From Bacteroidota bacterium (GTDB lineage: Bacteria > Bacteroidota > Bacteroidia > Flavobacteriales > Flavobacteriaceae): 64,000 bases of DNA. A model generated the notes under the pieces. That model saw only the letters and a program-made list of their open reading frames with translations. It made no database searches and was not told the DNA's origin. The stretch is taken from contig JAJRRO010000038.1 in NCBI GenBank assembly GCA_024279425.1, forward strand, positions 62,001 through 126,000, read 5' to 3'. Shown here piece after piece: positions 8,397 through 24,249 of the stretch. Position numbers and translations under genes: made by a program. Numbering within the stretch: position 1 is the stretch's first letter; each line of letters opens with the position of its first letter.

Positions 8397-8401
8397 ACTA
8401 A

Positions 8402-8702: not shown

Positions 8703-8716
8703 ATGACAATTGTCAT
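8703..8716. promoter_or_regulatory. CRP/FNR-type operator between napD and moeA
   Basis: A perfect palindrome, ATGACAATTGTCAT, in the 162-base divergent gap. It has the form TGAC-N4-GTCA expected for CRP/FNR-family regulators of anaerobic or NO-responsive genes. Its centre (8709.5) lies 29.5 bases before the first base of a TAnnTTTG box that faces moeA, which would place it near -41.5, a class II activator position. The same core and spacing recur at hemN and at the nos operon. On the napD side no matching box is found at that distance. The regulator gene itself is not in the window. Confidence 0.75.
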
Positions 8717-8738
8717 AAAATGAATATTTTCAAGGCGT

Positions 8739-8746
8739 TATATTTG
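8739..8746 (+). promoter_or_regulatory. Bacteroidota -7 promoter box (TATATTTG) for moeA
   Basis: TATATTTG matches the Bacteroidota -7 consensus TAnnTTTG. It ends 51 bases before the moeA ATG and sits at a fixed distance from the palindrome at 8703-8716. No convincing -33 TTTG element is seen, which fits an activator-dependent promoter. Confidence 0.6.
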
Positions 8747-8797
8747 TTTGGAAATAGCGTTTTCAAAATAAAAAAATCATAACCAGTTAATTTAAAG

Positions 8798-9982
8798 ATG
8801 ATTAAAGTAGAAGGTGCCAGACAATTAATATTTGACCACACAGAATATTTAGAGAAATATAGAATCAATCTAAGTAAAGGGATAACCTATTGCTTAGCAG
8901 AAGATATCTTCTCCCCCATAAGCATGCCTCCTTTTAGACAATCGGCCATGGATGGTTATGCCTTAAACTTAACCAAAAGCAGCACTCGGTCCTATTCTCT
9001 TGTTGGTGAAATAAAAGCTGGAGACAATTACAACCCGGAATTAAAAAAAGGACAGGCAGTTCGCATTTTCACTGGTGCTCCCGTTCCTGATTCAGCACAT
9101 GCCGTTGTTATGCAGGAGAAGGTAAGCACTAATGGCGAGACGATTACTATTGATGGCCCTGTGGCAGAAAGGGATAATATTCGCCCAGTAGGTGAACAAA
9201 TACAAAAGGGTGGATTGGCTTTGGAAAAAGGAACTAAGTTAAACGCTGCCGCCATTGGATATTTAGCCTCATTGGGAATTTCAGAAATAGAGGTTTACAA
9301 AAAGCCGAGAATAGCAGTCGTGATTACAGGTGATGAACTTACCAAGGCAGGGGGAAACCTAGATTACGGGAAAATATATGAAAGCAATGGAATTATGTTG
9401 GCAAGTGCTTTAAATGGTATTCACTTTACGGATGTTTCAACATTCAGGGTCGCGGACGACTACCAGAGCACATATAAGGTACTGGACCAGGCAATATCGG
9501 AACACGATGTAGTCATAATTACAGGCGGCATTTCCGTGGGCGATTACGATTATGTTGGAAGCGTTCTTCAAGATTTATCTGTGGAGCAAATTTTTTATAA
9601 GGTTAGGCAGAAGCCCGGAAAGCCGCTTTTTTTTGGAAAAAAGGGGAATACCTACATTTTTGCATTGCCCGGAAACCCGGCGGCAGCCCTAAGCTGCTTT
9701 TATGTTTATGTTTGGCCAGCTCTGCAAAAAATGTCGGGAGACCCAGCAATTCCCCATCTGGCAAGTACCATGGTGAAATCTAATTCAAACTACATTAAAA
9801 AAGGTGATAGGGCACAGTTTTTAAAAGCAATCTTAAACGAAAACGGGGTTACTATTCTTAAAAGTCAAGGTTCGGCTATGCTACAAACTTTTGCTTTGGC
9901 GAATGTTCTGGTTTACTTGCCTGAAGAACATGGAGACATACATATTGGAGACACAGTCCAGATTATCCCCTTACCCAACTAA
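8798..9982 (+). CDS. moeA: Molybdopterin molybdenumtransferase MoeA
   Basis: A 394-aa enzyme that inserts molybdate into adenylylated molybdopterin, needed here for the NapA cofactor. Seen features are PPFRQSAMDGYAL near residues 45-57, GEIKAGD, RIFTGAPVPDSAHAVVMQE, ITGDEL and the MPT-binding TGGISVGDYDYV, then a PGNPAA motif. The length is standard for the family. It is divergent from napD across a CRP/FNR-type palindrome, so it is probably induced together with denitrification genes. The ModE-like gene follows by 7 bases. Confidence 0.95.
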   Translation: MIKVEGARQLIFDHTEYLEKYRINLSKGITYCLAEDIFSPISMPPFRQSAMDGYALNLTKSSTRSYSLVGEIKAGDNYNPELKKGQAVRIFTGAPVPDSAHAVVMQEKVSTNGETITIDGPVAERDNIRPVGEQIQKGGLALEKGTKLNAAAIGYLASLGISEIEVYKKPRIAVVITGDELTKAGGNLDYGKIYESNGIMLASALNGIHFTDVSTFRVADDYQSTYKVLDQAISEHDVVIITGGISVGDYDYVGSVLQDLSVEQIFYKVRQKPGKPLFFGKKGNTYIFALPGNPAAALSCFYVYVWPALQKMSGDPAIPHLASTMVKSNSNYIKKGDRAQFLKAILNENGVTILKSQGSAMLQTFALANVLVYLPEEHGDIHIGDTVQIIPLPN

Positions 9983-9989
9983 TACAGCC

Positions 9990-10343
9990 ATGACCTATAA
10001 GATAAAAAGTAGAGTTTGGATTGAAATTGATGATAAGGTCTTATTGGGAGAGGGCAGGGTACGACTATTAAATGCCATCGAGGAACAGGGATCTTTGTCA
10101 AAAGCTGCAAAAGTATTGGGGATGTCCTATAAAAAGGCTTGGACACTTATTGATGCCGTGAATAAATCAGCACATGAACCAGTTGTGATAAGTAGTATCG
10201 GTGGCAGGGATGGTGGAGGAGCAAAGCTTACGCCGTATGGTAGATCTTTGATTGTCGCCTTTGAGAAAATCAACAAAAATTGTTGGAACTATTTGAATGA
10301 ACAAGTAAAAAGTTTACCCATGATAAAATACCCGACGGAGTGA
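9990..10343 (+). CDS. ModE-like winged-helix regulator (N-terminal DNA-binding domain only)
   Basis: A 117-aa protein starting at ATG 9990, 7 bases after moeA. Residues 20-80 hold a LysR/ModE-type winged helix: LLNAIEEQGSLSKAAKVLGM, SYKKAWTLIDAVN, then GGRDGGGAKLTPYG. The C-terminal molybdate-binding (TOBE/MOP) domains of full ModE are absent, as in many short family members. It probably senses or regulates molybdate-related genes; how it would detect molybdate without the TOBE part is unclear. A longer in-frame start within moeA at 9891 is possible but adds sequence without homology. Confidence 0.85.
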   Translation: MTYKIKSRVWIEIDDKVLLGEGRVRLLNAIEEQGSLSKAAKVLGMSYKKAWTLIDAVNKSAHEPVVISSIGGRDGGGAKLTPYGRSLIVAFEKINKNCWNYLNEQVKSLPMIKYPTE

Positions 10344-10396
10344 TTTTTTTAACGTTCCGATAAGCGAAAACTCCATTATACTCACCGAATCACTCC
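10337..10396. terminator. Inverted repeat spanning the stop codons of two convergent genes
   Basis: GGAGTGATT (10337-10345) is complementary to AATCACTCC (10388-10396), and the left arm is followed by a T run (10344-10350). The arms contain the stop codons of the ModE-like gene and of the convergent membrane protein gene. The loop is long (42 bases), so a bidirectional terminator is plausible but not certain. Confidence 0.4.
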
Positions 10397-11595
10397 CTTA
10401 CTTTCAAGTTTCCCATTAATATAAAAAACAAGGCCAGGGAAACCCATATACTTGCCACCGCCAACGCCTCAAAATATCCTTCAAATAGTGGTAGCTTTTG
10501 CCAGACAACTATTCCTTTGCCAAAAATCAAGACTTCCGTTGTAAAAAAACCTATTAGATATAGATAAAAGAACCATTTATTAAGATGGAGCATCTTGTAG
10601 TACTCTACAAACAAAAAGAGGCCCAGGGTCACCACTCCTAGAAAAGTCCAATGCAAATATCCTATTGTAAAATCGGTTATGGTTGCGGCCAAATTTGAAA
10701 AATAGGGTAATGCGGTCAACAATTGGAGTGCGATTTTAATTCCAAATAAAATAGTTAGGGTGAGAAACAAATTCCTTTGGAACGGTGAAAATATTTGGGA
10801 TAGCCTATCTTTAAATTTTAAACTTGGCATCAAAAGAATACCAAATGCGATAATTTGAAATAACGCTCCCAGTCCACCCAATACAAAAAATGGCAAAGGT
10901 GGATTGGTCCACAACGTAGACAAGAAAAACGTAAACACTATTCCTAGGTTAATGTTATAAAAGAACTGCTTAAAATTTCTTACTGGAATTTCAATGTTGT
11001 TCTCCTCCATCACATAAAACAAAAGCCCAAGAAGTGCTAGGATCATCCAGCCGTTGTATTGAAAATGCAGGTAGAAATAAATGGCCAACCTGTACCAAAT
11101 AGACTCCGCACCCAAAGTGTTCATAATACCACCCAGCGTCCACGGTCCTAGACTTGACAATACCATATACCATAAAGCGAACTTTATACATTTAAAGGAA
11201 TAGGTTTTCTTCAATGAATCGGGAACGTTTTTGATAAAAAACCATGTGAACCAGTAGGAAGCAAACAAAAACAAGGTCGAAAAAATAATTGAAAACAAGG
11301 CGTACCCTTGAAATGGAAAGGACAGGAGCATTCCTATCAGGGTTGCTTGCGTAAACCAGAAAATACGACGGTACCCTTTACCAACAAACTGATTTTTCAA
11401 GTATAATTTGACCAATAGGGTTGTTATACCCACGTATACCCAACCCAATAAGGCAATATGCGAATGCGTATGTACTATGAATTTATAGGTAAAGGGAATT
11501 TCAATAGAATGAAAAGACCTCAGCACTACCCCAAGAACGGCAGCTAAAACAAAATAGCCCAAGGCCAGGTTAATGTGGTTCTTTAAATTAAACAT
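10390..11595 (-). CDS. Haem-copper-oxidase-like / NnrS-like polytopic membrane protein of the nos operon
   Basis: A 401-aa protein with about twelve hydrophobic helices. The second helix begins FIVHTHSHIALLGWVYVG; a histidine pair followed by GW is seen in haem-copper oxidase subunit I and in NnrS. A further HFQYNGW motif (residues 178-184) and a LHWTFLG segment add conserved histidines. It is too short for a full oxidase and lacks the usual copper-site HPEVY motif. It is the last gene of the leftward nos operon, 31 bases after nosY. Proteins like this may bind haem or copper and assist N2O respiration, but I cannot assign a reaction. Confidence 0.6.
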   Translation of the reverse strand: MFNLKNHINLALGYFVLAAVLGVVLRSFHSIEIPFTYKFIVHTHSHIALLGWVYVGITTLLVKLYLKNQFVGKGYRRIFWFTQATLIGMLLSFPFQGYALFSIIFSTLFLFASYWFTWFFIKNVPDSLKKTYSFKCIKFALWYMVLSSLGPWTLGGIMNTLGAESIWYRLAIYFYLHFQYNGWMILALLGLLFYVMEENNIEIPVRNFKQFFYNINLGIVFTFFLSTLWTNPPLPFFVLGGLGALFQIIAFGILLMPSLKFKDRLSQIFSPFQRNLFLTLTILFGIKIALQLLTALPYFSNLAATITDFTIGYLHWTFLGVVTLGLFLFVEYYKMLHLNKWFFYLYLIGFFTTEVLIFGKGIVVWQKLPLFEGYFEALAVASIWVSLALFFILMGNLKVRE

Positions 11596-11626
11596 TCTTA
11601 AAAGGATTTCAGAATGCGAATTTAAC

Positions 11627-12409
11627 CTAAAAATCCTTTCTTTTTGATTTATAGGCCAATCTCCAAATCGGGAGTATCGTCCATAGCAGCAACATAGAAA
11701 TTGAAATCATCAATCCTAAATTGGTACCAAAGAACGATTTAAAAACAGCCCCTGTATACCCTAATAGCGCAGAAATATCAAGTTTCAACAATATTAAGGT
11801 CCTTGATAGATCTATGGGATTAAGCATTGTTGCCACAAGGGAAAATGAATCCAAGGGGTACTCCTCAAGTAGTATCAGTGATAATAAAAACAAGCCATCA
11901 TAAATCACGGCCAAGAACAACCATAGCAATACGGCATATCCAAAGCCCTTTATTTTATTTTCGTTGGATATGGCAATGTTAAACGCCAAAGCCGTAAAAA
12001 TCAAGGTTAAAAATGCCCCCGTTATCAATAACAACGAAAAGTCCCAAATAGCGTCGCTTTTAAAAAGTCCGTATAAGACAAATGGCAATCCCAATCCCAG
12101 AACCAAACTCATGGTCAAAGACCCGGCGACTCCAAAATATTGTCCTAAAAAAATCGATGTTCGTTTTAATGGTTGCGCCAAAAGCAATTCTGTAAATTCC
12201 TTGGAGTTATAGAAATACATCACCCCGAAAATTGTACTTATTAGAGGAACCAGCACAATAATCACATTCATTAAGGTTATTACAGCTTTGGACAAGTCAT
12301 TGTTCAAAAACAACAATACAAAACCCAAAGCCAGATAAAAGAGAAAATACACATAGCTCCAGCGACTACGCATTAAATCGTAAAAACTATATTTTAGTAT
12401 CTTAAGCAT
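11627..12409 (-). CDS. nosY: NosY-type ABC transporter permease
   Basis: A 260-aa ABC-2 permease with six hydrophobic helices and the N-terminal pattern YSFYDLMRSRWSYVYFLFY, then FTELLLAQPLKRTSIFLGQY. It forms the membrane part of the NosFY transporter, which with NosD and NosL serves maturation of the copper-sulfur centre of NosZ. Its start overlaps the end of nosF by 8 bases, indicating translational coupling. Confidence 0.9.
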   Translation of the reverse strand: MLKILKYSFYDLMRSRWSYVYFLFYLALGFVLLFLNNDLSKAVITLMNVIIVLVPLISTIFGVMYFYNSKEFTELLLAQPLKRTSIFLGQYFGVAGSLTMSLVLGLGLPFVLYGLFKSDAIWDFSLLLITGAFLTLIFTALAFNIAISNENKIKGFGYAVLLWLFLAVIYDGLFLLSLILLEEYPLDSFSLVATMLNPIDLSRTLILLKLDISALLGYTGAVFKSFFGTNLGLMISISMLLLWTILPIWRLAYKSKRKDF

Positions 12410-13112
12410 CTGTCGTCTGGATTGATATAGCCGCTATGGCATGTTCAAAATCTGTTTGCTGGGTCTTGGCCATCAATTGTTGAATACTTCCCTTGAAATA
12501 AATATCTCCTTCCAAAAGGTATATTATTTCATCGGCCATTTCTTCAACAAATTGCATAATATGGGTGGTAATCAAAATAGTCTTGCCCTTACCCTTTTCT
12601 TGAAGAATCAATTCCTTTAATTTAATAAGTGATGCTGGATCCAATCCGGTGGTAGGTTCATCAAGAATAATCAAGGGACTATCGAACATAAAAGTCAAGA
12701 CTATATTTACTTTCTGTTTTGTACCCCCAGAGAGTGTTCCCAGTTTTTTATCTAAAAAAGTTTCAAGGCCAAACGTTTTGATCAATTCATCTTCCTTACT
12801 TTCTTTTTGACGAAGATCTTTTATCATACGGATAAGTTCTTTCACCTTAAGGTTACCTGGAAAGTTGGCAATCTGGGGCAGATAGTCTATTTCTTGACGG
12901 TATTTCCAGTTTTTTTTGATGGATTTGTCGAGTACGGAAATGCTTCCTTTGCTAGGTATGACCATCCCCAAGATACTTTTAATCAAAGTAGTTTTTCCTG
13001 AACCATTAGGGCCAAGAACGGCAAAGATTCCGCCTCCTTTGATGTCAAGATCCAAATTTGAAAGCACTTGATTCTTACCAAACTTTTTATGTAGATTCTC
13101 TATCCGTATCAT
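12402..13112 (-). CDS. nosF: NosF-type ABC transporter ATPase
   Basis: A 236-aa ATPase with Walker A GPNGSGKTT near residue 35, the signature LSGGTKQKV, Walker B PLIILDEPTTGLDP and a switch-region histidine in ITTHIMQ. It energises the NosFY exporter used in NosZ assembly. It overlaps nosD by 4 bases and nosY by 8. The assignment to Nos rather than another ABC system rests on operon context. Confidence 0.92.
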   Translation of the reverse strand: MIRIENLHKKFGKNQVLSNLDLDIKGGGIFAVLGPNGSGKTTLIKSILGMVIPSKGSISVLDKSIKKNWKYRQEIDYLPQIANFPGNLKVKELIRMIKDLRQKESKEDELIKTFGLETFLDKKLGTLSGGTKQKVNIVLTFMFDSPLIILDEPTTGLDPASLIKLKELILQEKGKGKTILITTHIMQFVEEMADEIIYLLEGDIYFKGSIQQLMAKTQQTDFEHAIAAISIQTTDA

Positions 13113-14347
13113 TCTGATTTTTTCATTAGCGGCATGGCATCCAAAAGATTATCAGGTGTAAAAACCGGTGAAACTTTTTCTGAAAAGTCAATAATATCCA
13201 TAAACAAACTCCGCAACAGCACTATAGTTTCAGGTGTGCGGTTTACAATGTATGAAAACAATTTTACTGGGCGATATGGCACATCGCCTATTCCGTCCTT
13301 ATCCAAATCATAACCGGTATAATCACTCCAATAATTTTTCTCGAATACATTATCGTTCAACTTGCTATTGTACGATATGTCAAAAGAATTATATAGAAAG
13401 TTGTTATTAACAAATGAATTGGTATAACAAGCTCCTCTTACCTTAATTGCCCAACCGTTCCTTATAAATTCGTTGTTGGCATAGGTAATGCGATTAGACC
13501 CTTCTATGTTCATGCCAATCGTATTTTCTTCAAAACTGTTTCCTGATATTTCGGCATCATTAATTTCTTTCAACAACAGTCCAAAAGAAGCCGTACCCCA
13601 ATTTTTCTTAAAGCTGTTATTGAGCATTTTTATCTTTTTCGAGAACATTACCGCAACACCAGCGCCATTGTTCTCAAAAGTATTGCCTTCATAAATATCA
13701 TTATTTGAAAACATAAAGTGCAACCCATACCGAACATTGTTCGAACTCGTATTGTTTTTTATAATAACATCATCCGAAAACTCCAAATAAATACCATCGC
13801 GCACATGTTGTACAATATTTTGTTCTATTTCAATATTTCGGCAATACCAAAGTTGAATTCCATTCCCGGAATTGAATTCCTCTACTGCATCCCCAATAAT
13901 ATTATTGTGAAAAACCCTTCCATCTTGTGATTTTTCCAGATAAATCCCAAAAAAAAGTTTCTCCAAAACCACATTTTGGATAAGGAAGTTTTTGCTTTTT
14001 ACAACCCGAATAGCAGCAAAATCTTTGGTGTAGCTAGTCCCTACATTTATAATAAACAAACCATCTACAGTAACATTGTCCGAGATTATGGTAATTATTT
14101 CACCTTTGTCTTCACCATCAATTACAGGAAATTCCTCGCCTAGTAATGTCAAGGGCTTATCAATTACAATATTGAATTCTTTGTAGGTGCCTCTTTTAAT
14201 CAAAAGGGTGTCATGGTCAGATGCCAATACAATCCCATCCTTAATGGACTTTACGTCGCAGGCGGCACAAACCTCAATGATTTCAGCCCATAAGGCAGTT
14301 CCCATTAGGAAAATCAAAACCGATAAAGACAACCGTAATTTATTCAT
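13109..14347 (-). CDS. nosD: NosD periplasmic copper-processing protein
   Basis: A 412-aa exported protein with a signal peptide (residues 1-22) and a right-handed beta-helix of the NosD/CASH type: repeats such as GIYLEKSQDGRVFHNNI, GIYLEFSDDVIIKNNT and GLHFMFSNNDIYEGNT. The C-terminal motif NYWSDYTGYDLDKDGIGDVP is typical of NosD. It helps build the CuZ site of nitrous oxide reductase. Its ATG shares one base with the preceding cupin stop codon. Confidence 0.95.
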   Translation of the reverse strand: MNKLRLSLSVLIFLMGTALWAEIIEVCAACDVKSIKDGIVLASDHDTLLIKRGTYKEFNIVIDKPLTLLGEEFPVIDGEDKGEIITIISDNVTVDGLFIINVGTSYTKDFAAIRVVKSKNFLIQNVVLEKLFFGIYLEKSQDGRVFHNNIIGDAVEEFNSGNGIQLWYCRNIEIEQNIVQHVRDGIYLEFSDDVIIKNNTSSNNVRYGLHFMFSNNDIYEGNTFENNGAGVAVMFSKKIKMLNNSFKKNWGTASFGLLLKEINDAEISGNSFEENTIGMNIEGSNRITYANNEFIRNGWAIKVRGACYTNSFVNNNFLYNSFDISYNSKLNDNVFEKNYWSDYTGYDLDKDGIGDVPYRPVKLFSYIVNRTPETIVLLRSLFMDIIDFSEKVSPVFTPDNLLDAMPLMKKSE

Positions 14348-14640: not shown

Positions 14641-14663
14641 ATTCTAACATTTATTTAAAAAAT

Positions 14664-14715
14664 AATGGTTAACAGAAATTACTGGACATCACATGTCCGC
14701 ATACCATTAACCATT
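14664..14715. repeat. Nested inverted repeats between nosL and the cupin gene
   Basis: In the 91-base gap, AATGGTTAA (14664-14672) pairs with TTAACCATT (14707-14715), and inside it GGACAT (14684-14689) pairs with ATGTCC (14693-14698) across a 3-base loop. The transcript could fold into a branched hairpin that protects or processes mRNA. No strong T run follows, so it is not an obvious terminator. Confidence 0.5.
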
Positions 14716-14731
14716 AAAAATTATTATTTGA

Positions 14732-15178: not shown

Positions 15179-15187
15179 CCGTTTTAA

Positions 15188-15860: not shown

Positions 15861-17819
15861 TTATTCACCCAAAGACCATGAAAGATCAATGTCTGAATCA
15901 GCAGGAGACACCCTAACATAACCCTGCATCTCTTGGTGTAAAGCGGAACAGAAATCTGTACAATAAAATGGCCATACCCCTACTTGTTTTGGCTCCCAAA
16001 CAAAGGATTCTGTTTGTCCGGGCATAATCAAGAGCTCAGAAGTGTTGGCGCCAATTACACTAACACCATGAGGAACATCATAATCCTGCTCCAAGTTAGT
16101 GACATGAAAATATACCTTATCCCCAACCTTAACACCTTCAATATTGTCAGGATTAAAGTGACTACGAATCATAGTCATATAAATATGTACCTCTTTGCCG
16201 TTACGTTCAACTCTTACATCAGCATCTGAAGTTGTGGCATATTTATGCTTGTTTTCTGTTAGACTATAAATCTTTTTAGAATTCGGTTTTATTAAATCAG
16301 CAGGTATGCCAGCGGCGTAGTGAGGTTCGCCAATTGTAGGGAAATCGAGTAATAATTCCATTTTTTCCCCAGAAATGTCAAATAACTGTGCAGATTGGGT
16401 TACTTCCGGCCCTGTTGGCAAGTACCTGTCTTTGGTAATCTTGTTCATAGCCAACGCATATTTTCCAAAAGGTTTTCTGGAATTTCCACCTGGAATCATT
16501 AAATGTCCAACAGAATAATAGGTAGATTGCCTATCAACTACCTCCCAAGTCTTAAGCTTCCATTTAACAACTTCTGAGGAAATAAAGAAAGTGGTATAGG
16601 CATTTCCTTGTCCGTCAAACTCCGTATGCAATGGCCCTAAACCTGCCTGATTTACAGTTCCTGCAAGAACATCTTCGAATTTCAAGATTGGAATACCATA
16701 GGCTTCACCGTCAAACTTCTTATTTTCAATGGCATCCAACATTTTTGTGAAAGAATGCACTGTTAGATTTGCTGATAATTTACCGTTGCCAACTATATAT
16801 TCACCTGATGGATCTACATCACATCCGTGAGGAGATTTAGGCGTAGGCAAGAAATATACCGCTCCTGGAACCTTTAAAGGATCTACTACTAAAACTTCTT
16901 TTTTCATAGTCGATGTAGCTGTATGAGTGTGCTCGTCATACACATTATGGGCATAATTTGTCGGCATTATTGTACCGCCCCCATTATTTACATATTCCTC
17001 GATTTTCTTCCAATTTACCGCGGCAATGAAATCCTTATCATTCTGAGAGGCATTAACCTCTAACAATGTACTTGCCTCCTCAGTATTATACGTAGTGAAG
17101 AAGAACCATCCGTGAGAAGCACCTCTGCCTGGGTGAGACAAGTCATAGTCAAAACCTGGCATTATAAGCTGAAATTTAATATCCATTCCACCATCTTCAG
17201 GATCCACACTAATAAAAGACAAGACTCCCTTGAAGTTCCCTTTGTATTCATTAATAGGCATATCTCTTTGAGGAACTGGCACCGAGAAACGGGTACCCGC
17301 AACCACATATTCTGTGTTTTCTGTCACAAAAGAAGAACTGTGGTTACCTGCACTGTTAGGCACCTCAATTATTTCGGTTGTTTCAAATGTGGTCAAATCA
17401 ATCTTGGCAATACGCGGTGTATTATTCCCATTGATGAATACAAAACGACCGTCTAACTCCCCATTGGTTTGGGATATATCTGGGTGGTGTGAATCATCCC
17501 AAGGAACAAAACCAAAAGAGGTGTTCAACATAGGTTTGGTTTCCTCATTATACCCATAGGCCTTTTCAGCATCCTGTGAAAAGACGGGGATAACCTTGAA
17601 TAACCGCCCTGAAGGAAGACCATAGACGGATAACTGTCCGCTAAATCCTCCCGAGATAAAGGCATAATAGTCATCATGCTCCCCTGGAGCAACATAAACT
17701 TTCTCAGCAGCACTAGAAGATAACGCTCCATTTGAAGAGCTCTTTCCTTGATCGCCACAACTTGTGAAGATTATAGCAAGCCCTAAAAGGCTAAGCATTG
17801 AATAACTAATTTTTTTCAT
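15861..17819 (-). CDS. nosZ: Nitrous oxide reductase NosZ (Sec/lipoprotein, clade II type)
   Basis: A 652-aa enzyme reducing N2O to N2. It has a Sec-type lipoprotein signal (FTSC, Cys 21), not a Tat signal, which marks the atypical clade II group. A beta-propeller carries the CuZ-type histidines in DDSHHPD, GASHGWFF, AHNVYDEHTH, SPHGCDVD and GPLHTEF. The C-terminal cupredoxin CuA motif is CTDFCSALHQEM (C620, C624, H628, M631). The gene is complete. It is preceded by fasciclin and cytochrome c genes and followed by a hairpin. Confidence 0.97.
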   Translation of the reverse strand: MKKISYSMLSLLGLAIIFTSCGDQGKSSSNGALSSSAAEKVYVAPGEHDDYYAFISGGFSGQLSVYGLPSGRLFKVIPVFSQDAEKAYGYNEETKPMLNTSFGFVPWDDSHHPDISQTNGELDGRFVFINGNNTPRIAKIDLTTFETTEIIEVPNSAGNHSSSFVTENTEYVVAGTRFSVPVPQRDMPINEYKGNFKGVLSFISVDPEDGGMDIKFQLIMPGFDYDLSHPGRGASHGWFFFTTYNTEEASTLLEVNASQNDKDFIAAVNWKKIEEYVNNGGGTIMPTNYAHNVYDEHTHTATSTMKKEVLVVDPLKVPGAVYFLPTPKSPHGCDVDPSGEYIVGNGKLSANLTVHSFTKMLDAIENKKFDGEAYGIPILKFEDVLAGTVNQAGLGPLHTEFDGQGNAYTTFFISSEVVKWKLKTWEVVDRQSTYYSVGHLMIPGGNSRKPFGKYALAMNKITKDRYLPTGPEVTQSAQLFDISGEKMELLLDFPTIGEPHYAAGIPADLIKPNSKKIYSLTENKHKYATTSDADVRVERNGKEVHIYMTMIRSHFNPDNIEGVKVGDKVYFHVTNLEQDYDVPHGVSVIGANTSELLIMPGQTESFVWEPKQVGVWPFYCTDFCSALHQEMQGYVRVSPADSDIDLSWSLGE

Positions 17820-17849
17820 TGTATTTGTTTTTGTAATTTATGTTTCGTT

Positions 17850-18428
17850 TTATTCAGTAGGAGGTAACATTACCTTGTCGATAACATGTACAATACCGTT
17901 GCCTGCTTTTACACTTCCAATGATTTTAGCACCGCCTACATACACTTCACCATCTTTTACCTCAATAGCAACGTCCTGATTATTGGCCTGTCCCAATTTT
18001 TTGAATTTCTTTAAAAACTCTTTGCTGTAATTGCCCGGGGTTACGTGGTATTTTAAAATATTGGCCAATGCATTTTTGTTTTCTGGCTTTAACAAATCAG
18101 AAACCGTTCCTTCTGGGAGGGCATCAAAGGCAGCATTTGTTGGTGCGAAAACCATTAAAGGACCCGCATTTACCAATGCATTTTCAAGTTCGGCCGCTTG
18201 TACGGCAACAACTAAAGTGGTATGATCCGGAGACCCAATGGCAATGTTCAAAATATTGGGTGTAGAACCATCATCAGCTATAAAGGCTTGGCCCGTTTTT
18301 TTTACTTCTTTCGTGCTTGTGCTTGAAGAAGTTGTTGTCTCAGTCTTGGTTTCATTCTTACAGCCGACAAATAAAACTAGCATAAAAAATGAACCAAATA
18401 ATACTCTTAATTTGGTTGTTGTTTTCAT
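17850..18428 (-). CDS. Fasciclin-domain lipoprotein in the nos operon
   Basis: A 192-aa lipoprotein (lipobox FVGC at about residue 23), then a Ser/Thr/Lys linker and one fasciclin (FAS1) domain: TTLVVAVQAAELENAL, FAPTNAAFDALPEGTV, ILKYHVTPGNY and VHVIDKVMLPP. FAS1 domains mediate adhesion or protein contact. The gene lies between cytochrome c and nosZ, with gaps of 11 and 30 bases. It may help dock the cytochrome donor with NosZ, but that is inference. Confidence 0.88.
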   Translation of the reverse strand: MKTTTKLRVLFGSFFMLVLFVGCKNETKTETTTSSSTSTKEVKKTGQAFIADDGSTPNILNIAIGSPDHTTLVVAVQAAELENALVNAGPLMVFAPTNAAFDALPEGTVSDLLKPENKNALANILKYHVTPGNYSKEFLKKFKKLGQANNQDVAIEVKDGEVYVGGAKIIGSVKAGNGIVHVIDKVMLPPTE

Positions 18429-18439
18429 ATGATTGTTAA

Positions 18440-18943
18440 TTATAATGTTCTAAAATATTCTAGGACAGCTCTAGCCTGTTCCTCGGTAAGCCCTTGATTT
18501 GCCATTGGCGAACCATTGAACTCCATTAATAAATCCTTGGCCAATGGATCTTCTTTTACCATTTGATCGGGATTAAGTATCATATTCATTGCCCATTCAG
18601 GGGTTCTTCTTTCTAAAATACCATTTGGAGCAGGACCAATGAATTTTTTACCAACTCTATGGCAGGCCATACACATTTGATCAAAGACCTCTTTTCCCTT
18701 TACGGCCATGGCTTCGTCGATAGCATTGCCTATTTCCAAAGAAGTAACAGGACCTATTCCTTTATTTGATAAATCAACTCGTTCCGATGCTTTTGTTTCA
18801 GGAACCGCAGGCGTTTCAACTACTTTTTCAATGGTCTTTTGTCTTTTTACGCTAAAGCCCTCTTTTTTCTTTTCTTCCTTACCACCACAACTCACCAGTA
18901 GCAACGAGAATAAGAGAACCATACTTTTAAATACTATTTTCAT
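18440..18943 (-). CDS. Monohaem cytochrome c lipoprotein, first gene of the nos operon
   Basis: A 167-aa lipoprotein (VSCGGKEEKK, acyl Cys about residue 20) with a charged linker and a class I cytochrome c domain: haem motif CMACH near residue 91 and an axial Met candidate in NGSPMANQGLTEEQ, ending VLEYFRTL. It is likely the direct electron donor to NosZ. Its promoter region holds a CRP/FNR-type dyad centred 62 bases before the ATG. Confidence 0.9.
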   Translation of the reverse strand: MKIVFKSMVLLFSLLLVSCGGKEEKKKEGFSVKRQKTIEKVVETPAVPETKASERVDLSNKGIGPVTSLEIGNAIDEAMAVKGKEVFDQMCMACHRVGKKFIGPAPNGILERRTPEWAMNMILNPDQMVKEDPLAKDLLMEFNGSPMANQGLTEEQARAVLEYFRTL

Positions 18944-18968
18944 TTTTAAATATTTATTGAATTATAGG

Positions 18969-18976
18969 CAAAAGTA
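18969..18976 (-). promoter_or_regulatory. -7 promoter box (TACTTTTG) of the nos operon
   Basis: Read leftward, TACTTTTG matches TAnnTTTG. It lies 29.5 bases from the centre of the dyad at 18996-19015 and about 26 bases before the cytochrome c start codon. The spacing equals that at moeA and hemN. Confidence 0.65.
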
Positions 18977-18995
18977 TGAGTGGCTCCCATATTAA

Positions 18996-19015
18996 AATAT
19001 GATAAAAGTCATATT
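18996..19015. promoter_or_regulatory. CRP/FNR-type dyad between the nos operon and the rrf2 gene
   Basis: AATATGAtaaaagTCATATT has perfect 7-base arms; its core TGATAAAAGTCA differs by one symmetric position from TGAC-N4-GTCA. It is centred at 19005.5. A TAnnTTTG box lies 29.5 bases away toward nos, and TATATTTA (19035-19042, seven of eight consensus bases allowing for the free positions) lies the same distance away toward rrf2, so the site may drive both directions. Confidence 0.7.
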
Positions 19016-19065
19016 TAGGACAATTTTATCTTTTTATATTTACTTCTTTAAAAATCAGAGATTTA

Positions 19066-19497
19066 ATGTTTTCTAACTCCTCTAAATATGCCATAAAGGC
19101 AGTTTTGTACTTAGCCATACATTCAAGTGAATCAAAAAAAATAAGGGTTAAGAACATTAGTGAACCCATTAATGTTCCACAGGCGTATATTGCCAAATTA
19201 TTACAAGAACTATCAAGACATCGTATTGTTTCTTCAACCCGAGGACCCAATGGTGGTTTTTTTCTCAGTGATGCAAATATGAAAACTCTTTTAATTGAAA
19301 TTGTCAATGTAATTGACGGTGAAGACAGATTAAATTCCTGTTTATTGAGCTTACATAACTGCAATAGTGAAAAACCCTGCCCACTTCACGATTTTGCTAG
19401 ACCTTTTAGGACCAATTTTATCGAGAGCCTTGAACAAAATACAATTGAGGATTTAGCACGTGATGTAAAAAGAGGAAAATCGTTCTTACCGTTATAA
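19066..19497 (+). CDS. Rrf2-family regulator, NsrR/IscR-like with three cysteines
   Basis: A 143-aa winged-helix regulator starting SSKYAIKAVLYLAIHS, with the recognition region VPQAYIAKLLQELSRHRIV and wing SSTRGPNGGFFL. Cysteines at about 92, 99 and 105 (SCLLSLHNCNSEKPCPLH) are placed as the Fe-S ligands of NsrR and IscR. It therefore probably binds an NO- or redox-sensitive cluster. The gene is divergent from the nos operon and shares its promoter gap, so control of nos or nap genes is likely. Whether it senses NO cannot be told from sequence alone. Confidence 0.88.
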   Translation: MFSNSSKYAIKAVLYLAIHSSESKKIRVKNISEPINVPQAYIAKLLQELSRHRIVSSTRGPNGGFFLSDANMKTLLIEIVNVIDGEDRLNSCLLSLHNCNSEKPCPLHDFARPFRTNFIESLEQNTIEDLARDVKRGKSFLPL

Positions 19498-19569
19498 AAT
19501 AATATTCTTGCCCTGCACAGGTAAAAAGTGTAACTTCCGACTGCATTTTTCAAACCAATAATTCTATTT

Positions 19570-20961
19570 ATGGACAAGGGCAGTACTAGAAGATCATTTT
19601 TAAAAAAAGCTACAATAGGTTCAGCCGCATTAACATCAGCACCTTATGTTTTTGCCTCTTCCTACGAGCAAAAATTGACTCTTAAAAGAAATTACCTTCA
19701 CGCAGATTATGCTGTCAATGACCAAATTAATCTTGGATTGATTGGATCTGGCATACAAGGAATTTATGACACCACCGCGGCTTTGAGGGTCAGTGGGGTA
19801 AAATTGGTGGCAGTATGTGATCTTTATACAGGCAGGCTAGATCGTGCCAAGGAGCTTTGGGGCAGTGATATTTCGGTCACACGTGATTATCGCGAATTAT
19901 TGAATCGGAAGGATATTGATGCCGTTATTGTTGCTACACCTGATCATTGGCACAAAAAAATCACTATTGAGGCAATGAAGGCTGGAAAAGCCGTTTACTG
20001 TGAAAAACCAATGGTGCAAAATTTCATTGAAGGCCATGAGATAATAAAAGTCCAAAAAGAGACAGGGGCTGTATGTCAAGTGGGTAGTCAGGGAATGTCA
20101 TCTTTGGGTAATGAAAAAGCAAAACAACTGTATGAAGATGGTGCGATTGGGGAAATAGTAATGTTAGACATGTATAATGATCGATATTCCTCGGAAGGAG
20201 CATGGCAATACCCTATCCCTCCCGATGCCAATTCCAAAACCGTCGATTATGATACTTTTTTAGGAAGAGCCCCTAAAACGCCCTTTGACACCACCCGTTT
20301 TTTCAGATGGAGGAATTACAAGGATTATGGTACCGGGGTTGCTGGCGATCTTTTCGTGCATGCGTTTTCATCCTTGAATTATATCCTTAGTTCAAACGGA
20401 CCCTCACGCGCGTTATCTACAGGAGGATTAAGATATTGGCAAGATGGTCGGGATGTACCCGATGTTACCTTGACATTTTATGACTACCCGCAAACCAATA
20501 CCCATGCAGCATTCAATGCATCGTTTAGAGTCAACTTTATAGCTGGTTCTGGAGGTGGTGGTGGCTTTAAGATAATTGGGACTGAAGGGGCTATGGAAGT
20601 TGATTCGAATTCAGTTAAACTTACCCGGGCCAAATTGGGTATGGTTCCTGGTGGCTATTCCATGATTTCCTATACCGAAGAAACCCAAAAGAAAATAAAA
20701 GAAGCATATGCACAGCAAAATCTTGAAACAAGAGCGTCGGCCTTAAATATTGGAGAAACGATCTATAAGGCTCCCGGAGATTATAAAGGATCACATTATG
20801 ATCACTTTTATAATTTTTTTCAAAGCATACGAACTAAAAAAACAGTGATTCAAAATCCTGAATTTGGACTTAGGGCTGCAGGAGCCGCGCTTTTGGCCAA
20901 TGAAAGTTATTACCAGCAAAAACCCGTGAACTGGAATCCCAAAACCATGAAGCTATCCTAA
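19570..20961 (+). CDS. Gfo/Idh/MocA-family oxidoreductase with Tat signal
   Basis: A 463-aa NAD(P)-dependent sugar oxidoreductase-type protein. A Tat signal STRRSFLKKATIGSAAL sits at residues 4-20. The nucleotide-binding glycine motif is LIGSGIQGIYD, followed by CDLYTGR, VATPDHWH and EKPMV, the conserved Lys-Pro of this family. Tat export of a cofactor-carrying family member points to a periplasmic role in sugar processing, as in glycoside-modifying members of Bacteroidota. It precedes a PIG-L deacetylase gene by 16 bases. The substrate is unknown. Confidence 0.9.
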   Translation: MDKGSTRRSFLKKATIGSAALTSAPYVFASSYEQKLTLKRNYLHADYAVNDQINLGLIGSGIQGIYDTTAALRVSGVKLVAVCDLYTGRLDRAKELWGSDISVTRDYRELLNRKDIDAVIVATPDHWHKKITIEAMKAGKAVYCEKPMVQNFIEGHEIIKVQKETGAVCQVGSQGMSSLGNEKAKQLYEDGAIGEIVMLDMYNDRYSSEGAWQYPIPPDANSKTVDYDTFLGRAPKTPFDTTRFFRWRNYKDYGTGVAGDLFVHAFSSLNYILSSNGPSRALSTGGLRYWQDGRDVPDVTLTFYDYPQTNTHAAFNASFRVNFIAGSGGGGGFKIIGTEGAMEVDSNSVKLTRAKLGMVPGGYSMISYTEETQKKIKEAYAQQNLETRASALNIGETIYKAPGDYKGSHYDHFYNFFQSIRTKKTVIQNPEFGLRAAGAALLANESYYQQKPVNWNPKTMKLS

Positions 20962-20977
20962 TATAAAATGTAAAACC

Positions 20978-21856
20978 ATGAAAAAAATAATCTTTCTTTT
21001 TTGTCTAATACTCTGTGTTTTTACCATAAACTCACAGACTGACCCTCTAAACATTATTGTTTTTGGCGCACATCCCGATGATTGTGATATCGATACCGGA
21101 GGAACTGCCATTTTGTTCTCGAAAATGGGGCATAATGTAAAATTCGTATCCTTGACCAATGGTGATGCAGGTCATTATGCCAAAGGCGGGGGTGAATTGG
21201 CCAAAATAAGGATTGCCGAAGCCAATGAGGCAGGAAAAAGATTCGGTGTTGAATATACGGTTTTGGATAATCACGATGGGGAATTAATGCCCACTTTGGC
21301 GAACCGCCTTAAGGTCATAAGGGAAATTAGAAAATGGAATGCTGATGTTGTTATCGCCCCTAGGCCCAACGATTACCATCCCGATCACAGATATACAGGC
21401 ATTTTGGTTCAAGATGCAGCTTATATGGTCATTGTGCCCAATGTGGCCCCAGAAGTAGCACCACTCCAAAAAAATCCCGTTTTCCTGTATTCAGAAGATC
21501 GTTTTCAAAAACCAAGTCCGTTTGATCCCGATATCGCCGTTATCATCGATGATGTATTTGATCAGAAAATTTATGCAATGGCCGCACATGAATCTCAATT
21601 TTTTGAGTGGTTGCCATGGACTTCTGGCAATCTTGAAAAAATCCCCAAAGATGAAAAGTCCAGACTGGAAATGCTGTCCAATTGGCGTTCATCGACCCCT
21701 TCTGAAAAAGCAATGGTATGCTCAAAAAAATGGTATGGCGATAGTGCCTTGAAAGCTAAAAAAATTGAACTGTTCGAAATCTGCGAATATGGAAAACAAC
21801 CATCCGATGATGAAATAAAAGCTTTATTTCCTATGCTTTCTGGCAATCCCAAATAA
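20978..21856 (+). CDS. PIG-L family deacetylase, exported
   Basis: A 292-aa protein with a signal peptide (residues 1-19, FTINSQ) and the LmbE/PIG-L zinc motif AHPDDCDIDTGG (about 29-40) with the second motif YHPDHRYTG near 131. These enzymes remove N-acetyl groups from GlcNAc-type sugars. It is probably cotranscribed with the Gfo/Idh gene, suggesting a periplasmic amino-sugar modification step. It converges on the usp gene. Confidence 0.9.
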   Translation: MKKIIFLFCLILCVFTINSQTDPLNIIVFGAHPDDCDIDTGGTAILFSKMGHNVKFVSLTNGDAGHYAKGGGELAKIRIAEANEAGKRFGVEYTVLDNHDGELMPTLANRLKVIREIRKWNADVVIAPRPNDYHPDHRYTGILVQDAAYMVIVPNVAPEVAPLQKNPVFLYSEDRFQKPSPFDPDIAVIIDDVFDQKIYAMAAHESQFFEWLPWTSGNLEKIPKDEKSRLEMLSNWRSSTPSEKAMVCSKKWYGDSALKAKKIELFEICEYGKQPSDDEIKALFPMLSGNPK

Positions 21857-21912
21857 TATATTGTCCATTGTGAAAAGATAAGATTACATCGTATCCCTTC
21901 ACCTATTGTTTC

Positions 21913-21944
21913 AAAAAAAAAGGGAAGCCAAAATCGGCTCCCCC
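21913..21944 (-). terminator. Intrinsic terminator of the hemN-usp operon
   Basis: Read leftward, GGGGAGCC (21943-21936), a 6-base loop and GGCTTCCC (21929-21922) form a stem with one G-U pair in RNA, followed directly by a run of nine T (21921-21913). It lies 32 bases after the usp stop codon. Confidence 0.85.
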
Positions 21945-21975
21945 TAAACATCAATTTAACATAAATAATTGACAA

Positions 21976-22797
21976 CTAAATCTTAAACGTAACCACTGGA
22001 ATTGTAGAGTGGTTTGCAATGTCTTCCCCTATACTTCCCATGAAGAAGTGGGATAGCCCTTTTCTACCATGGGTAGGGATTCCAATCATATCAGCGCCTA
22101 TATTCGCACTGTAATTAAGAATTCCTCTTTCAATATTATAGTCATTGTATACTTCAGCCTCCATTCCAACTCCTGCCTTGTTCAGAAACTGTGAAATTCT
22201 TTCATAGGCATCCTGAGTGCTTAGAAAATCATCTCCAGGTGTATTTATATATACAAGTTTGAATTCTGCGGAAAGCATATCGGCAAAATCTCTTGCCTTT
22301 TCAAAGACAGGGAGGCTCTCTTCCTTAAATCCACATGCAAAGAGGAGACGATCAATCTTAAAATCTTCATGGTCATTCTTGATTACAAGAACAGGAATGT
22401 CCGCATTGCGTACGACACGTTCGGTATTTGAACCCACAAATATTTCTTTTAGGCCATCAATACCATGGGATCCCATAACGATCATATCAGCGCCATTCTT
22501 TTTAGCTACTTCGTTGACCTCGCTAAACACCTTGAAGTGCTTTACAACCGACGTTACTTTTACACCCTTTAAATATGGCTTATTTAAAAAATCCTTAAAC
22601 CTTTTCTCTGCCAATTTTATGAGGAATACAGTTTGTTCGGGATGAAACCCTTCTGATGAGGATATCATTGCCTGATTGAGTTCAAGCATATGCAGTGCTA
22701 AAATTTCAGCATTATGTTTTTTTGCTAATGAAGCGGCGACTTTCAAAGCATAATCCGATTGTTCTGAAAAATCCGTGGGAACTACTATTTTTTTCAT
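21976..22797 (-). CDS. Universal stress protein, two UspA domains
   Basis: A 273-aa cytosolic protein with tandem Usp folds. Domain 1 starts KKIVVPTDFSEQSDYALKVA and ends MIVMGSHGIDGLKEIFVGSN-TERVV; domain 2 (about 145-273) ends IGIPTHGRKGLSHFFMGSIG. The G-x2-G-x9-GS/T ATP-binding pattern is visible in both. It follows hemN by 28 bases and is probably under the same CRP/FNR-type promoter, fitting a role in anaerobic or stress physiology. Confidence 0.92.
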   Translation of the reverse strand: MKKIVVPTDFSEQSDYALKVAASLAKKHNAEILALHMLELNQAMISSSEGFHPEQTVFLIKLAEKRFKDFLNKPYLKGVKVTSVVKHFKVFSEVNEVAKKNGADMIVMGSHGIDGLKEIFVGSNTERVVRNADIPVLVIKNDHEDFKIDRLLFACGFKEESLPVFEKARDFADMLSAEFKLVYINTPGDDFLSTQDAYERISQFLNKAGVGMEAEVYNDYNIERGILNYSANIGADMIGIPTHGRKGLSHFFMGSIGEDIANHSTIPVVTFKI

Positions 22798-22825
22798 GAT
22801 ATAAGATTTAAAGATTAGCCTAAAA

Positions 22826-24187
22826 TTAAATTGTCATTGAAAACAATCTGGTGCCAGGTTCTTTCCTATGTAATAAAAGATCAAATGCCATGCAAATATT
22901 CCGAATAAAGGGCTGACCTTTTTCAGTAACCTTTAGTTCGTCTTGCCCTATTTCAACAAGCTCATCCAATTCCATTTCGTGAAGTTTATCAATAACCATA
23001 GGCAACTCGGGAAAGAAAGCATCCCGTTGGGTCAATGATGTTCTAAACCTGCACATTAGATTCAGAATATGCCTCCTAATGGTCTCATCCTCATTCGATA
23101 AAATGTGACCTCGATAAATAGGAATGATGTTATTTTCAACCAAATGCTTGTACTCCTCCAAACTTTTTACATTTTGGGCAAAACTGTACCAACTATCGCT
23201 TATACTTGAAGCTCCCAAACCAATCATCAATCGTGTTTTCGATGCAGTATACCCCATAAAGTTTCGATGTAACTTTCCAGACATCATGGATGTATGCAAA
23301 CTATCACTTCTTAATGCAAAATGGTCCATTCCAATTTCTTCATACCCCACCTGCGTCAAAAGTTTTTTCCCCTTTTCATACTGGCTTCTCTTTTCCTTGG
23401 CCGATGGCAAATCTTCGTCTCTGAAACCTCTTTGCCCATTCCCCTTTAACCATGGCACATGTGCATAGCTGTAAAAGGCCAATCTATCGGGCATTAATTC
23501 TTTGGTCTTAAGAATGGTTTCTTCAACATGTTCCAAAGTTTGATGCGGTAATCCAAATATAATATCGTGACCAACAGAGGTGTATCCTATTGCTCGAGCT
23601 GCTTCTGTTACCTTTTTTACATTTTCAAAAGGTTGTACCCTATGTATTGACTTTTGAACTTTTTCATTGTAATCCTGCACCCCGTAACTAACCCTTCGAA
23701 AGCCAACATCATACAAGGCTTGCAAATGTTCTTTTGTCGTATTGTTTGGGTGACCCTCAAAACTAAATTCATAACCCTCGGCTTTTTCAGCAATTCTAAA
23801 GATTCCCGTTATAAGCATCTTCAGATTTTCCGGAGAGAAGAAGGTGGGCGTGCCACCTCCTAAATGTAATTCTTTGATTATTGGTCTTGAATCAAAAAGA
23901 TTACAGTATAATCTCCATTCCTTTAAAACCGAATTTATATAGGGTGTTTCAACCTTATGTTGTTTTGTAATGCGTTTATGGCAACCACAGAAAGTACACA
24001 TGCTTTCACAATAGGGCAAGTGTATGTACAAACTTATACCTTCTTTCTCATTGCTCTCCTCAAAACTCCTTTTAAGCGTTTTTTTCCATTTCTCACCAGA
24101 AAAAGTCTCAATATCCCAGTAGGGAACCGTAGGGTAACTTGTATATCTTGGTCCTGGGATATTATATTTCTGAACTATATTTTGCAT
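22826..24187 (-). CDS. hemN: Oxygen-independent coproporphyrinogen III dehydrogenase HemN
   Basis: A 453-aa radical-SAM enzyme for haem synthesis without oxygen. It has the HemN start YNIPGPRYTSYPTVPYWD, the cluster motif YCESMCTFCGC, HLGGGTPTFF, and the C-terminal HemN domain with MGYTASKT. I start it at ATG 24187 (MQNIVQKYN), which gives the family length. An open frame runs back to 24283, but that 32-residue extension covers a TAnnTTTG box and a CRP/FNR-type palindrome and has no family match. It leads a two-gene operon with usp and supplies haem for the cytochromes used in anaerobic respiration. Confidence 0.95.
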   Translation of the reverse strand: MQNIVQKYNIPGPRYTSYPTVPYWDIETFSGEKWKKTLKRSFEESNEKEGISLYIHLPYCESMCTFCGCHKRITKQHKVETPYINSVLKEWRLYCNLFDSRPIIKELHLGGGTPTFFSPENLKMLITGIFRIAEKAEGYEFSFEGHPNNTTKEHLQALYDVGFRRVSYGVQDYNEKVQKSIHRVQPFENVKKVTEAARAIGYTSVGHDIIFGLPHQTLEHVEETILKTKELMPDRLAFYSYAHVPWLKGNGQRGFRDEDLPSAKEKRSQYEKGKKLLTQVGYEEIGMDHFALRSDSLHTSMMSGKLHRNFMGYTASKTRLMIGLGASSISDSWYSFAQNVKSLEEYKHLVENNIIPIYRGHILSNEDETIRRHILNLMCRFRTSLTQRDAFFPELPMVIDKLHEMELDELVEIGQDELKVTEKGQPFIRNICMAFDLLLHRKEPGTRLFSMTI

Positions 24188-24206
24188 CGCATAATTTGTA
24201 TCGCTA

Positions 24207-24249
24207 CAAACATACGATGCCCATTCCTTAGAAAATATGACAATTGTCA
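24207..24249 (-). promoter_or_regulatory. hemN promoter: CRP/FNR-type palindrome plus -7 box
   Basis: TGACAATTGTCA at 24238-24249 is a perfect 12-base palindrome identical in core to the one at 8704-8715. Read leftward, TATGTTTG (24214-24207) matches TAnnTTTG and lies 29.5 bases from the palindrome centre. Transcription would begin near 24202, shortly before the hemN ATG at 24187. Confidence 0.78.

What the first reader, a model, noticed from the sequence alone, without database searches (positions are those of the whole stretch)
8703..24249. Three anaerobic promoters share a CRP/FNR-type dyad at exactly the same distance from a TAnnTTTG box
TGACAATTGTCA is identical at moeA (8704-8715) and hemN (24238-24249), and TGATAAAAGTCA lies at the nos operon (core of 18996-19015). 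In all three the dyad centre is 29.5 bases from the near end of a TAnnTTTG box, placing it near -41.5 of the predicted start, the class II activator position. Identical geometry in three places is unlikely by chance. It predicts one activator controlling Mo cofactor, haem, nitrate and N2O genes; the regulator is elsewhere in the genome.
Basis: partly seen in the sequence, partly recalled or inferred. Interest (0 to 1): 0.8.

Follow-up and report, generated by a model that had tools for sequence, protein, structure and literature searches.

The report
Flavobacterial anaerobic (FNR-type) promoter rule
Three promoters for low-oxygen respiration genes carry nearly the same 12-letter palindrome at exactly the same distance from the promoter box, and this arrangement recurs in about 20 promoters of this genome and in many related flavobacteria, so it is very probably the landing site of the oxygen-response (FNR-like) activator of these bacteria.

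Summary
The dyads at moeA, nos and hemN sit exactly 29.5 bases from TAnnTTTG. TGAYnnnnRTCA-N23-TAnnTTTG occurs 19 times in the genome, reversed 0 times. In 60 genomes it occurs 491 times against 7 reversed; ten neighbouring spacings together give 247. It precedes the nos operon in 72 of 76 loci and hemN in 25 of 30; moeA is weaker, 6 of 19, mostly one base longer. Start-site mapping in one flavobacterium puts TAnnTTTG at -12 to -5 (PMC9723704), so the dyad lies near -41.5, the class II activator position. A regulator candidate lies 8.4 kb outside the window: an FNR-like protein beside cbb3-type oxidase genes, with four invariant cysteines and the same dyad before its own gene in 27 of 30 relatives. 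A receiver-CRP fusion with a similar recognition helix may read the same sites. The box, ATGAYnnnnRTCAT, is neither the printed DNR/FNR nor the HcpR2 consensus. Ten library searches found no description. New variant of a known kind. Binding, oxygen sensing and activation are inferred.

The parts
8704..8715 (+). dyad TGACAATTGTCA of the moeA promoter, predicted -47 to -36
   Evidence: spacing 29.5
8739..8746 (+). -7 box TATATTTG of moeA
8798..9982 (+). moeA
   Evidence: PRK10680 E 4.6e-106, below that model's curated cut-off; TIGR00177 above its cut-off
8402..8635 (-). napD-like gene, divergent from moeA, just before napA; shares the intergenic dyad, no TAnnTTTG at 29.5 on this side
   Evidence: translation; name napD from position and recall; napA 6069-8399
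19000..19011 (-). dyad TGACTTTTATCA of the nos operon promoter, lying also before the divergent Rrf2 gene
   Evidence: correctly spaced site in 72 of 76 nos loci
18969..18976 (-). -7 box TACTTTTG of the nos operon
15861..18943 (-). start of the nos operon: cytochrome c 18440-18943, fasciclin-domain protein 17850-18428, Sec-dependent NosZ 15861-17819
19035..19042 (+). box-like TATATTTA at 29.5 on the other side of the nos dyad, toward Rrf2
   Evidence: in relatives the other-side box distance varies
19066..19497 (+). Rrf2-family regulator gene, divergent from nos
   Evidence: TIGR00738; divergent Rrf2 at 37 of 71 nos sites
24238..24249 (-). dyad TGACAATTGTCA of the hemN promoter
   Evidence: correctly spaced site in 25 of 30 genomes, own included
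24207..24214 (-). -7 box TATGTTTG of hemN
22826..24187 (-). hemN, oxygen-independent coproporphyrinogen III oxidase; start near 24187, so the dyad is upstream of the gene
   Evidence: TIGR00538 above cut-off, matched from residue 3
8736..8759 (.). inverted repeat CGTTATATTTGTTTGGAAATAGCG over the moeA -7 box, ModE-operator-like (motif recalled)
   Evidence: a CGYTAT...ATARCG repeat is seen at all six moeA loci that have a dyad with a box, this one included (read)

Best explanation
The three sites are class II activator sites of a flavobacterial anaerobic regulon. A dimer of a CRP/FNR-family protein binds ATGAYnnnnRTCAT centred near -41.5 and helps sigma-A RNA polymerase start from a TAnnTTTG promoter that shows no TTTG at -33. 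The main regulator is most likely the FNR-like protein encoded 8.4 kb left of the window beside cbb3-type oxidase genes (here FNR-A). Its four invariant cysteines suggest an oxygen-labile Fe-S cluster, so it would be active when oxygen is low, and it would also act on its own promoter region. Shown here: sites, spacing, conservation, neighbouring genes, the regulator's domains, cysteines and own dyad. Inferred: binding, cluster, oxygen response, activation.
For: Spacing: 491 N23 hits in 60 genomes versus 7 reversed; the ten other spacings from 18 to 28 give 247 in all. Footprints: nos 72 of 76 loci, with 75 box pairs at 29.5 and 15 at all other spacings; hemN 25 of 30. Own genome: 18 of 19 N23 sites lie in no ORF of 100 aa or more on either strand (the hemN site lies in the overlong form of hemN's own ORF and in a 106-aa antisense ORF), and all 19 have an ORF start within 160 bases downstream of the box; targets include nos, norC-norB with a nirK-like gene behind, a pta-like gene, hemN, moeA and a 2-oxoacid:ferredoxin oxidoreductase (pta and nirK named by reading). 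The dyad before the ccoS-ccoN-like genes has TAGCTTTA at 29.5 (names by reading). Mapped starts in F. psychrophilum place TAnnTTTG at -12 to -5, and oxygen limitation there induces cbb3 and haem genes (PMC9723704, passages). FNR-A: CRP/FNR domains; C9, C12, C58, C111 in 30 of 30 and own dyad in 27 of 30. The 41 genomes with an FNR-A match better than 1e-40 have a median of 7 sites; of the other 19, 16 have 0 or 1 and no frame of about 350 aa was listed for these 16.
Against: G014, G032 and G036 have no FNR-A match better than 1e-40 but 10, 8-9 and 8 sites (10, 9, 8) and a hemN site, so another protein can use the box. G053 has an FNR-A match but no N23 site, G026 and G057 only one; G043 encodes a CRP/FNR protein with the helix ESAIR but has no site. 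The dyad before FNR-A is at 29.5 from a TAnnTTTG in only 5 of 27. Five of 30 hemN and 13 of 19 moeA loci lack a dyad with a box at or near the distance. Several own targets (glycosidase-like, FadL-type, weak PqqD-like, an unknown 474-aa protein) have no evident anaerobic role.
Confidence: 0.7

Rival explanations
1. The main activator is the receiver-CRP fusion (response regulator domain plus CRP/FNR effector part, contig C56 at 86.8 kb), driven by a histidine kinase rather than by direct oxygen sensing; FNR-A only fine-tunes.
For: The fusion has a receiver domain plus CRP/FNR domains and a recognition helix close to that of FNR-A (ATETLIR versus ATESAIR). Genomes G014, G032, G036, which have receiver-CRP-like proteins (judged by length and helix) but no FNR-A match better than 1e-40, keep 10, 9 and 8 sites and the hemN site. 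A PAS/kinase-like ORF lies just before the gene and Usp-like ORFs after it in the own genome (names from reading).
Against: G015, G019 and G029 had a single match each in the FNR-A search, no fusion listed, yet have 6, 3 and 3 sites. FNR-A carries the self-dyad in 27 of 30.
Confidence: 0.2
2. Another CRP/FNR paralogue (C32 protein with CMNCTKRC, or the C102/C85 proteins with ExISR or VxISR helices) is the regulator, or each subset of sites has its own regulator.
For: Seven proteins with an HTH_Crp_2 domain over cut-off lie in the genome, FNR-A and the fusion included. The C102 regulator is followed at once by TGACCTTGGTCAC with a box at N23, and a like pair exists in G047, so a second box class with the same geometry is likely.
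Against: The C32 helix lacks the glutamate (MTIANAIR). The C102-type box lacks the T after TCA that 184 of 201 pooled sites have.
Confidence: 0.09
3. Chance coincidence or composition artefact.
Against: Reversed-pattern control 7 versus 491; about 20-fold more hits at N23 than at an average neighbouring spacing; conservation at nos and hemN.
Confidence: 0.01

Closest known systems
FNR regulon and class II FNR/CRP-dependent promoters of Escherichia coli (recalled)
   Same: CRP/FNR-fold regulator, TGA-N6-TCA core, dyad near -41.5, targets in anaerobic respiration, haem and fermentation
   Different: Outer bases are ATGA..TCAT (T at -48 in 2%, T at -35 in 92% of 201 sites) where FNR has TTGAT..ATCAA; works with a TAnnTTTG box; recognition helix E-x-x-I-R, not E-x-x-S-R (recalled); third cysteine elsewhere (C58)
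FNR type regulator of PDB entries 5cvr, 5e44, 9qlt (Aliivibrio fischeri FNR, organism recalled)
   Same: Best-scoring entries named FNR in the PDB search, after 2gau; two N-terminal cysteines and a later one (LCFIP versus VCEIP) align with FNR-A
   Different: The FNR cysteine in QLCIP has no counterpart in FNR-A; FNR-A has an invariant C58 instead
DNR / HcpR regulons (Rodionov 2005, PMC1274295)
   Same: CRP/FNR proteins that control nir, nor, nos or hcp genes
   Different: Printed consensus DNR TTGATnnnnATCAA and HcpR2 (Bacteroides and others) GTAACnnnnGTTAC differ; a cyanobacterial HcpR box TTGACnnnnGTCAA shares the core but not the outer bases (passages)
CRP/FNR meta-regulon of an anammox reactor (PMC8510549)
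   Same: Looked for CRP/FNR targets in, among others, a Flavobacteriales genome

Membership tests
Class II CRP/FNR-dependent promoter | activator dyad centred near -41.5 of the start | tested here: met
   29.5 bases to a box that lies at -12 to -5 in mapped starts of a family member; the starts themselves were not mapped here
Class II CRP/FNR-dependent promoter | fixed spacing conserved at orthologous promoters | tested here: met
   nos 72 of 76, hemN 25 of 30; moeA only 1 of 19 at 29.5, 4 at 30.5, 1 at 31.5
Class II CRP/FNR-dependent promoter | activating contacts with RNA polymerase | not testable with these tools
   needs transcription assays
FNR (oxygen sensor) protein family | cyclic-nucleotide-binding fold plus Crp-type HTH | tested here: met
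   PF00027, PF13545, PF00325 over cut-off
FNR (oxygen sensor) protein family | four cluster cysteines with the FNR spacing (recalled C20, C23, C29, C122) | tested here: not met
   three align, the C29 equivalent is absent; C9, C12, C58, C111 present in 30 of 30
FNR (oxygen sensor) protein family | recognition helix E-x-x-S-R (recalled) | tested here: not met
   TATESAIR in 20 of 30, other E-x-x-I-R in 10 of 30
FNR (oxygen sensor) protein family | oxygen-labile [4Fe-4S] cluster | not testable with these tools
   needs purified protein
FNR box TTGATnnnnATCAA | outer T/A pair | tested here: not met
   A 66% and C 24% at -48, T 92% at -35 (sites collected with a fixed TGA/TCA core, outer bases free)
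HcpR2 | GTAACnnnnGTTAC box | tested here: not met
   core here TGAYnnnnRTCA; consensus from PMC1274295

The most novel reading that the evidence does not exclude
Flavobacteriales run anaerobic respiration with one box read by two unlike sensors: an FNR with a relocated cysteine (C9, C12, C58, C111) that senses oxygen directly, and a receiver-CRP fusion that brings a kinase signal, each able to replace the other in evolution; single dyads also serve two back-to-back promoters (nos and an Rrf2 regulator).
Probability: 0.3. Interest if true: 0.75.

Novelty: new variant of a known kind. Interest (0 to 1): 0.6.

Why it matters
Flavobacteria with clade II NosZ are counted among N2O consumers (recalled), yet how they switch nos on is not described in anything my ten searches found. 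The rule gives an exact, testable promoter (dyad near -41.5, ATGAYnnnnRTCAT), a candidate regulator and a list of targets, for many species at once. It also offers a way to predict operon starts and low-oxygen genes in bacteria with TAnnTTTG promoters. It qualifies the printed statement (PMC8510549, passage) that no evidence of denitrification control by CRP/FNR factors was seen in a Flavobacteriales genome and its companions; I did not examine those genomes.

Tried and rejected
Chance: rejected by controls. HcpR2, DNR or canonical FNR box: rejected on printed consensus and pooled flanks. A -33 TTTG element: not seen in the pooled sites, only a T-rich stretch at -33 to -30. Phylum-wide rule: of 148 genomes of the phylum, 34 of 37 in the same class or closer have a hit, and 26 of 111 elsewhere (39 hits there against 5 reversed), so a faint trace remains outside the class (counted from the table). 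Spacing absolutely fixed: rejected; with a T required after TCA, N24 gives 42 hits (6 reversed) and N22 gives 26 (2 reversed) in 60 genomes. One N22 sequence type recurs in the nine genomes of the genus examined and in the own genome precedes a malate-dehydrogenase-like gene (name from reading; the gene was looked at in the own genome only). AlphaFold model of FNR-A (mean pLDDT 79.3, residues 1-11 under 50): C9 is in the unreliable part and no coordinates were at hand, so I draw nothing from it. HemN in viral contigs: one match of 37% identity, not pursued. Papers: ten searches listed no paper on this box, judged from listings; passages of four papers were read and the outline and abstract of one; no paper was read whole. 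The library lacks most subscription journals.

Rows dropped or not seen: 4 of 80 nos loci with too little upstream sequence, the 80 being the best of 567 relatives; hemN loci were returned for 30 of 39 genomes with a match; FNR-A loci for 30 of the matches. Pooled base counts use 201 distinct sites from all loci held, many fetched by the same pattern and many related, so only the free positions are informative. Match lists were cut by the tool; counts come from their per-genome tables. ORFs were called mechanically.
Full report
The observation. The dyads at 8704-8715 (moeA), 19000-19011 (nos, read on the minus strand) and 24238-24249 (hemN, minus strand) each have their centre 29.5 bases from the near end of TAnnTTTG. 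No other dyad in the window, even with one mismatch in the TGA/TCA arms, sits at that distance. The hemN ORF of the mechanical list starts upstream of the dyad, but the TIGR00538 match covers the protein that starts at 24187 from its residue 3, so the dyad is upstream of the gene.

Is it chance? In the own genome (5.27 Mb, 140 contigs) TGAYnnnnRTCA followed by TAnnTTTG after 8 to 38 bases gives 41 hits and 7 reversed; 19 have exactly 23 bases between, against 0 reversed. In 60 genomes (own and 59 relatives) N23 gives 491 hits against 7 reversed, and 48 of 60 genomes have one. All eleven spacings from 18 to 28 give 738 against 97 reversed, so the ten others give 247, about 25 each. In 148 genomes of the phylum, 34 of 37 in the same class or closer have a hit; outside the class 26 of 111 have one to three (39 hits, 5 reversed). 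So the geometry is real, strong in the family and order and faint beyond the class.

Orthologous promoters. The best 80 of 567 NosZ relatives were fetched; most records are titled Flavobacteriaceae, Flavobacteriales or genera of that family, a few only Bacteroidia or Bacteroidetes. 76 have enough upstream sequence, and 72 of these have TGAYnnnnRTCA with TAnnTTT at 29.5 within 2.6 kb before nosZ. Among the box pairs in that region 75 lie at 29.5 and 15 at every other spacing. For hemN, 25 of 30 loci have it; of the five misses one has the dyad without the box and four have no dyad, among them G028, which also had no match to FNR-A. For moeA 6 of 19 loci have a dyad with a nearby box, at 29.5 (own), 30.5 (four) and 31.5 (one); 13 have none. 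'Identical distance' therefore holds strictly for nos and hemN and within one or two bases for moeA.

What the sites control. Of the 19 own sites 18 lie in no ORF of 100 aa or more on either strand; the hemN site is covered by the overlong form of hemN's own ORF and by a 106-aa antisense ORF. All 19 have an ORF start within 160 bases downstream of the box, by mechanical ORF calling. Targets: the nos operon, norC-norB (PF00034, PF00115) with a nirK-like gene behind, a pta-like gene with an ackA-like gene behind, a deoC-like gene, hemN, moeA, a pyruvate/2-oxoacid ferredoxin oxidoreductase (PF01855, PF01558), and several without a clear link: a glycosidase-like gene, a FadL-type protein (PF03349), a weak PqqD match under cut-off, a 474-aa protein without Pfam match (nirK, pta, ackA, deoC and glycosidase named by reading the sequence). 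With TAnnTTTA allowed, ccoS-ccoN-like genes (cbb3 oxidase) and a Usp-like gene next to the regulator join (names by reading). In the 80 nos loci, 137 sites (box TAnnTTTG or TAnnTTTA) stand before relatives of the nos cytochrome c gene (65), the fasciclin gene (9), hemN (11), Usp (8), Rrf2 (6), nirK (4), norC (3), moeA (1), ccoN (1) and 29 other genes.

Why -41.5. In Flavobacterium psychrophilum mapped starts place the sigma-A box TAnnTTTG at -12 to -5 (PMC9723704, passages read). A centre 29.5 bases upstream of -12 is -41.5. The predicted starts are 8751, 18964 and 24202. The same paper reports that oxygen limitation strongly induces cbb3 oxidase and that haem synthesis enzymes rise too; its main text does not contain words beginning with Fnr or Crp. 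The pooled sites show no TTTG at -33 but a T-rich stretch at -33 to -30 right after the dyad, as expected if the activator stands in for a -33 element; this is inference.

The regulator. Seven proteins with HTH_Crp_2 over cut-off are encoded. FNR-A (contig C57:52858-53556, minus) lies 8.4 kb left of the window, divergent from a ccoI-like gene and next to cbb3-type genes (names by reading). It has the CRP/FNR domains, cysteines 9, 12, 58 and 111 in 30 of 30 orthologues, a recognition helix E-x-x-I-R in 30 of 30 (TATESAIR in 20), and a TGAYnnnnRTCA dyad 42 to 68 bases before its start in 27 of 30. That own dyad is 29.5 from a TAnnTTTG in only 5 of 27, toward FNR-A in three and toward ccoI in two. 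Against the FNR of PDB 9qlt, C9, C12 and C111 align with cysteines, the FNR cysteine in QLCIP has no counterpart, and C58 aligns with no cysteine. Of the 60 genomes, the 41 with an FNR-A match better than 1e-40 have a median of 7 sites (G053 has 0, G026 and G057 have 1). Of the other 19, 16 have 0 or 1. The three exceptions G014, G032 and G036 (10, 9 and 8 sites) carry receiver-CRP-like proteins, judged by length and helix: ASETLIR and STESFIR in G014, ATESLIR in G032, ASETLIR in G036. G043 has a protein with ESAIR but no site. The own genome has both kinds. So both may read the same box. Genome size and kinship confound this comparison.

Not a member of the classic families in the strict sense. 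The outer base of the box (A or C before TGA in 90%, T after TCA in 184 of 201 sites) is unlike the DNR/FNR consensus TTGATnnnnATCAA, and the core is unlike HcpR2 GTAACnnnnGTTAC; the helix is E-x-x-I-R, not E-x-x-S-R; one cysteine differs. It works like an FNR class II system; it is not filed as canonical FNR.

Novelty. Ten library searches listed no description of this box or of an FNR regulon in Flavobacteriia (listings; calls in Tried and rejected). [quoted passage not shown] It searched that genome with a Bacteroides MalR matrix; I infer that this would not show the present box. Class II activation itself is textbook. Hence: new variant of a known kind, interest 0.6.

Noticed in passing
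window 8736-8759 and 9891-10343: An inverted repeat CGTTAT...ATAGCG covers the moeA -7 box; related repeats (CGYTATATTTG...ATAACG) stand at the five moeA promoters of relatives that have a spaced dyad. A gene with a LysR-type HTH follows moeA (PF00126). It looks like ModE control of moeA on top of the FNR-type site (ModE motif recalled).
   Followed up: partly
window 18969-19042: One dyad may serve two divergent promoters, nos and Rrf2. Of 71 nos sites 37 have a divergent Rrf2; of these 37, 5 have the other-side box at 29.5 and 14 at 30.5, but boxes at 21.5 and 35.5 are also common, and 5 sites without Rrf2 have one at 29.5, so this is only suggestive. Dyads with N23 boxes on both sides: G023 C2:256994-257067, G030 C1:1447049-1447122, G005 C1:3596686-3596759.
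   Followed up: partly
L063:7608-7619 (contig C57 about 53607): The dyad between FNR-A and the ccoI-like gene is conserved (27 of 30) but lies 29.5 from a TAnnTTTG in only 5 of 27; where a strict box is found it is often at 15.5 (6) or 10.5 (4), and 13 of 27 show no strict box on either side. This could mean repression there.
   Followed up: partly
G000:C102:25671-26289: A CRP/FNR paralogue with helix REVISR is followed at once by TGACCTTGGTCAC and a box at N23 before a small protein gene; G047 C34 has a like pair. Probably a second box class with the same geometry.
   Followed up: no
G000:C114:51801-51842: Dyad with box at 28.5 before a malate-dehydrogenase-like gene (name by reading); a like N22 sequence recurs in the nine genomes of the genus examined.
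   Followed up: no
L065:490-5068: The receiver-CRP gene lies between a PAS/kinase-like ORF and Usp-like ORFs (names from reading).
   Followed up: no
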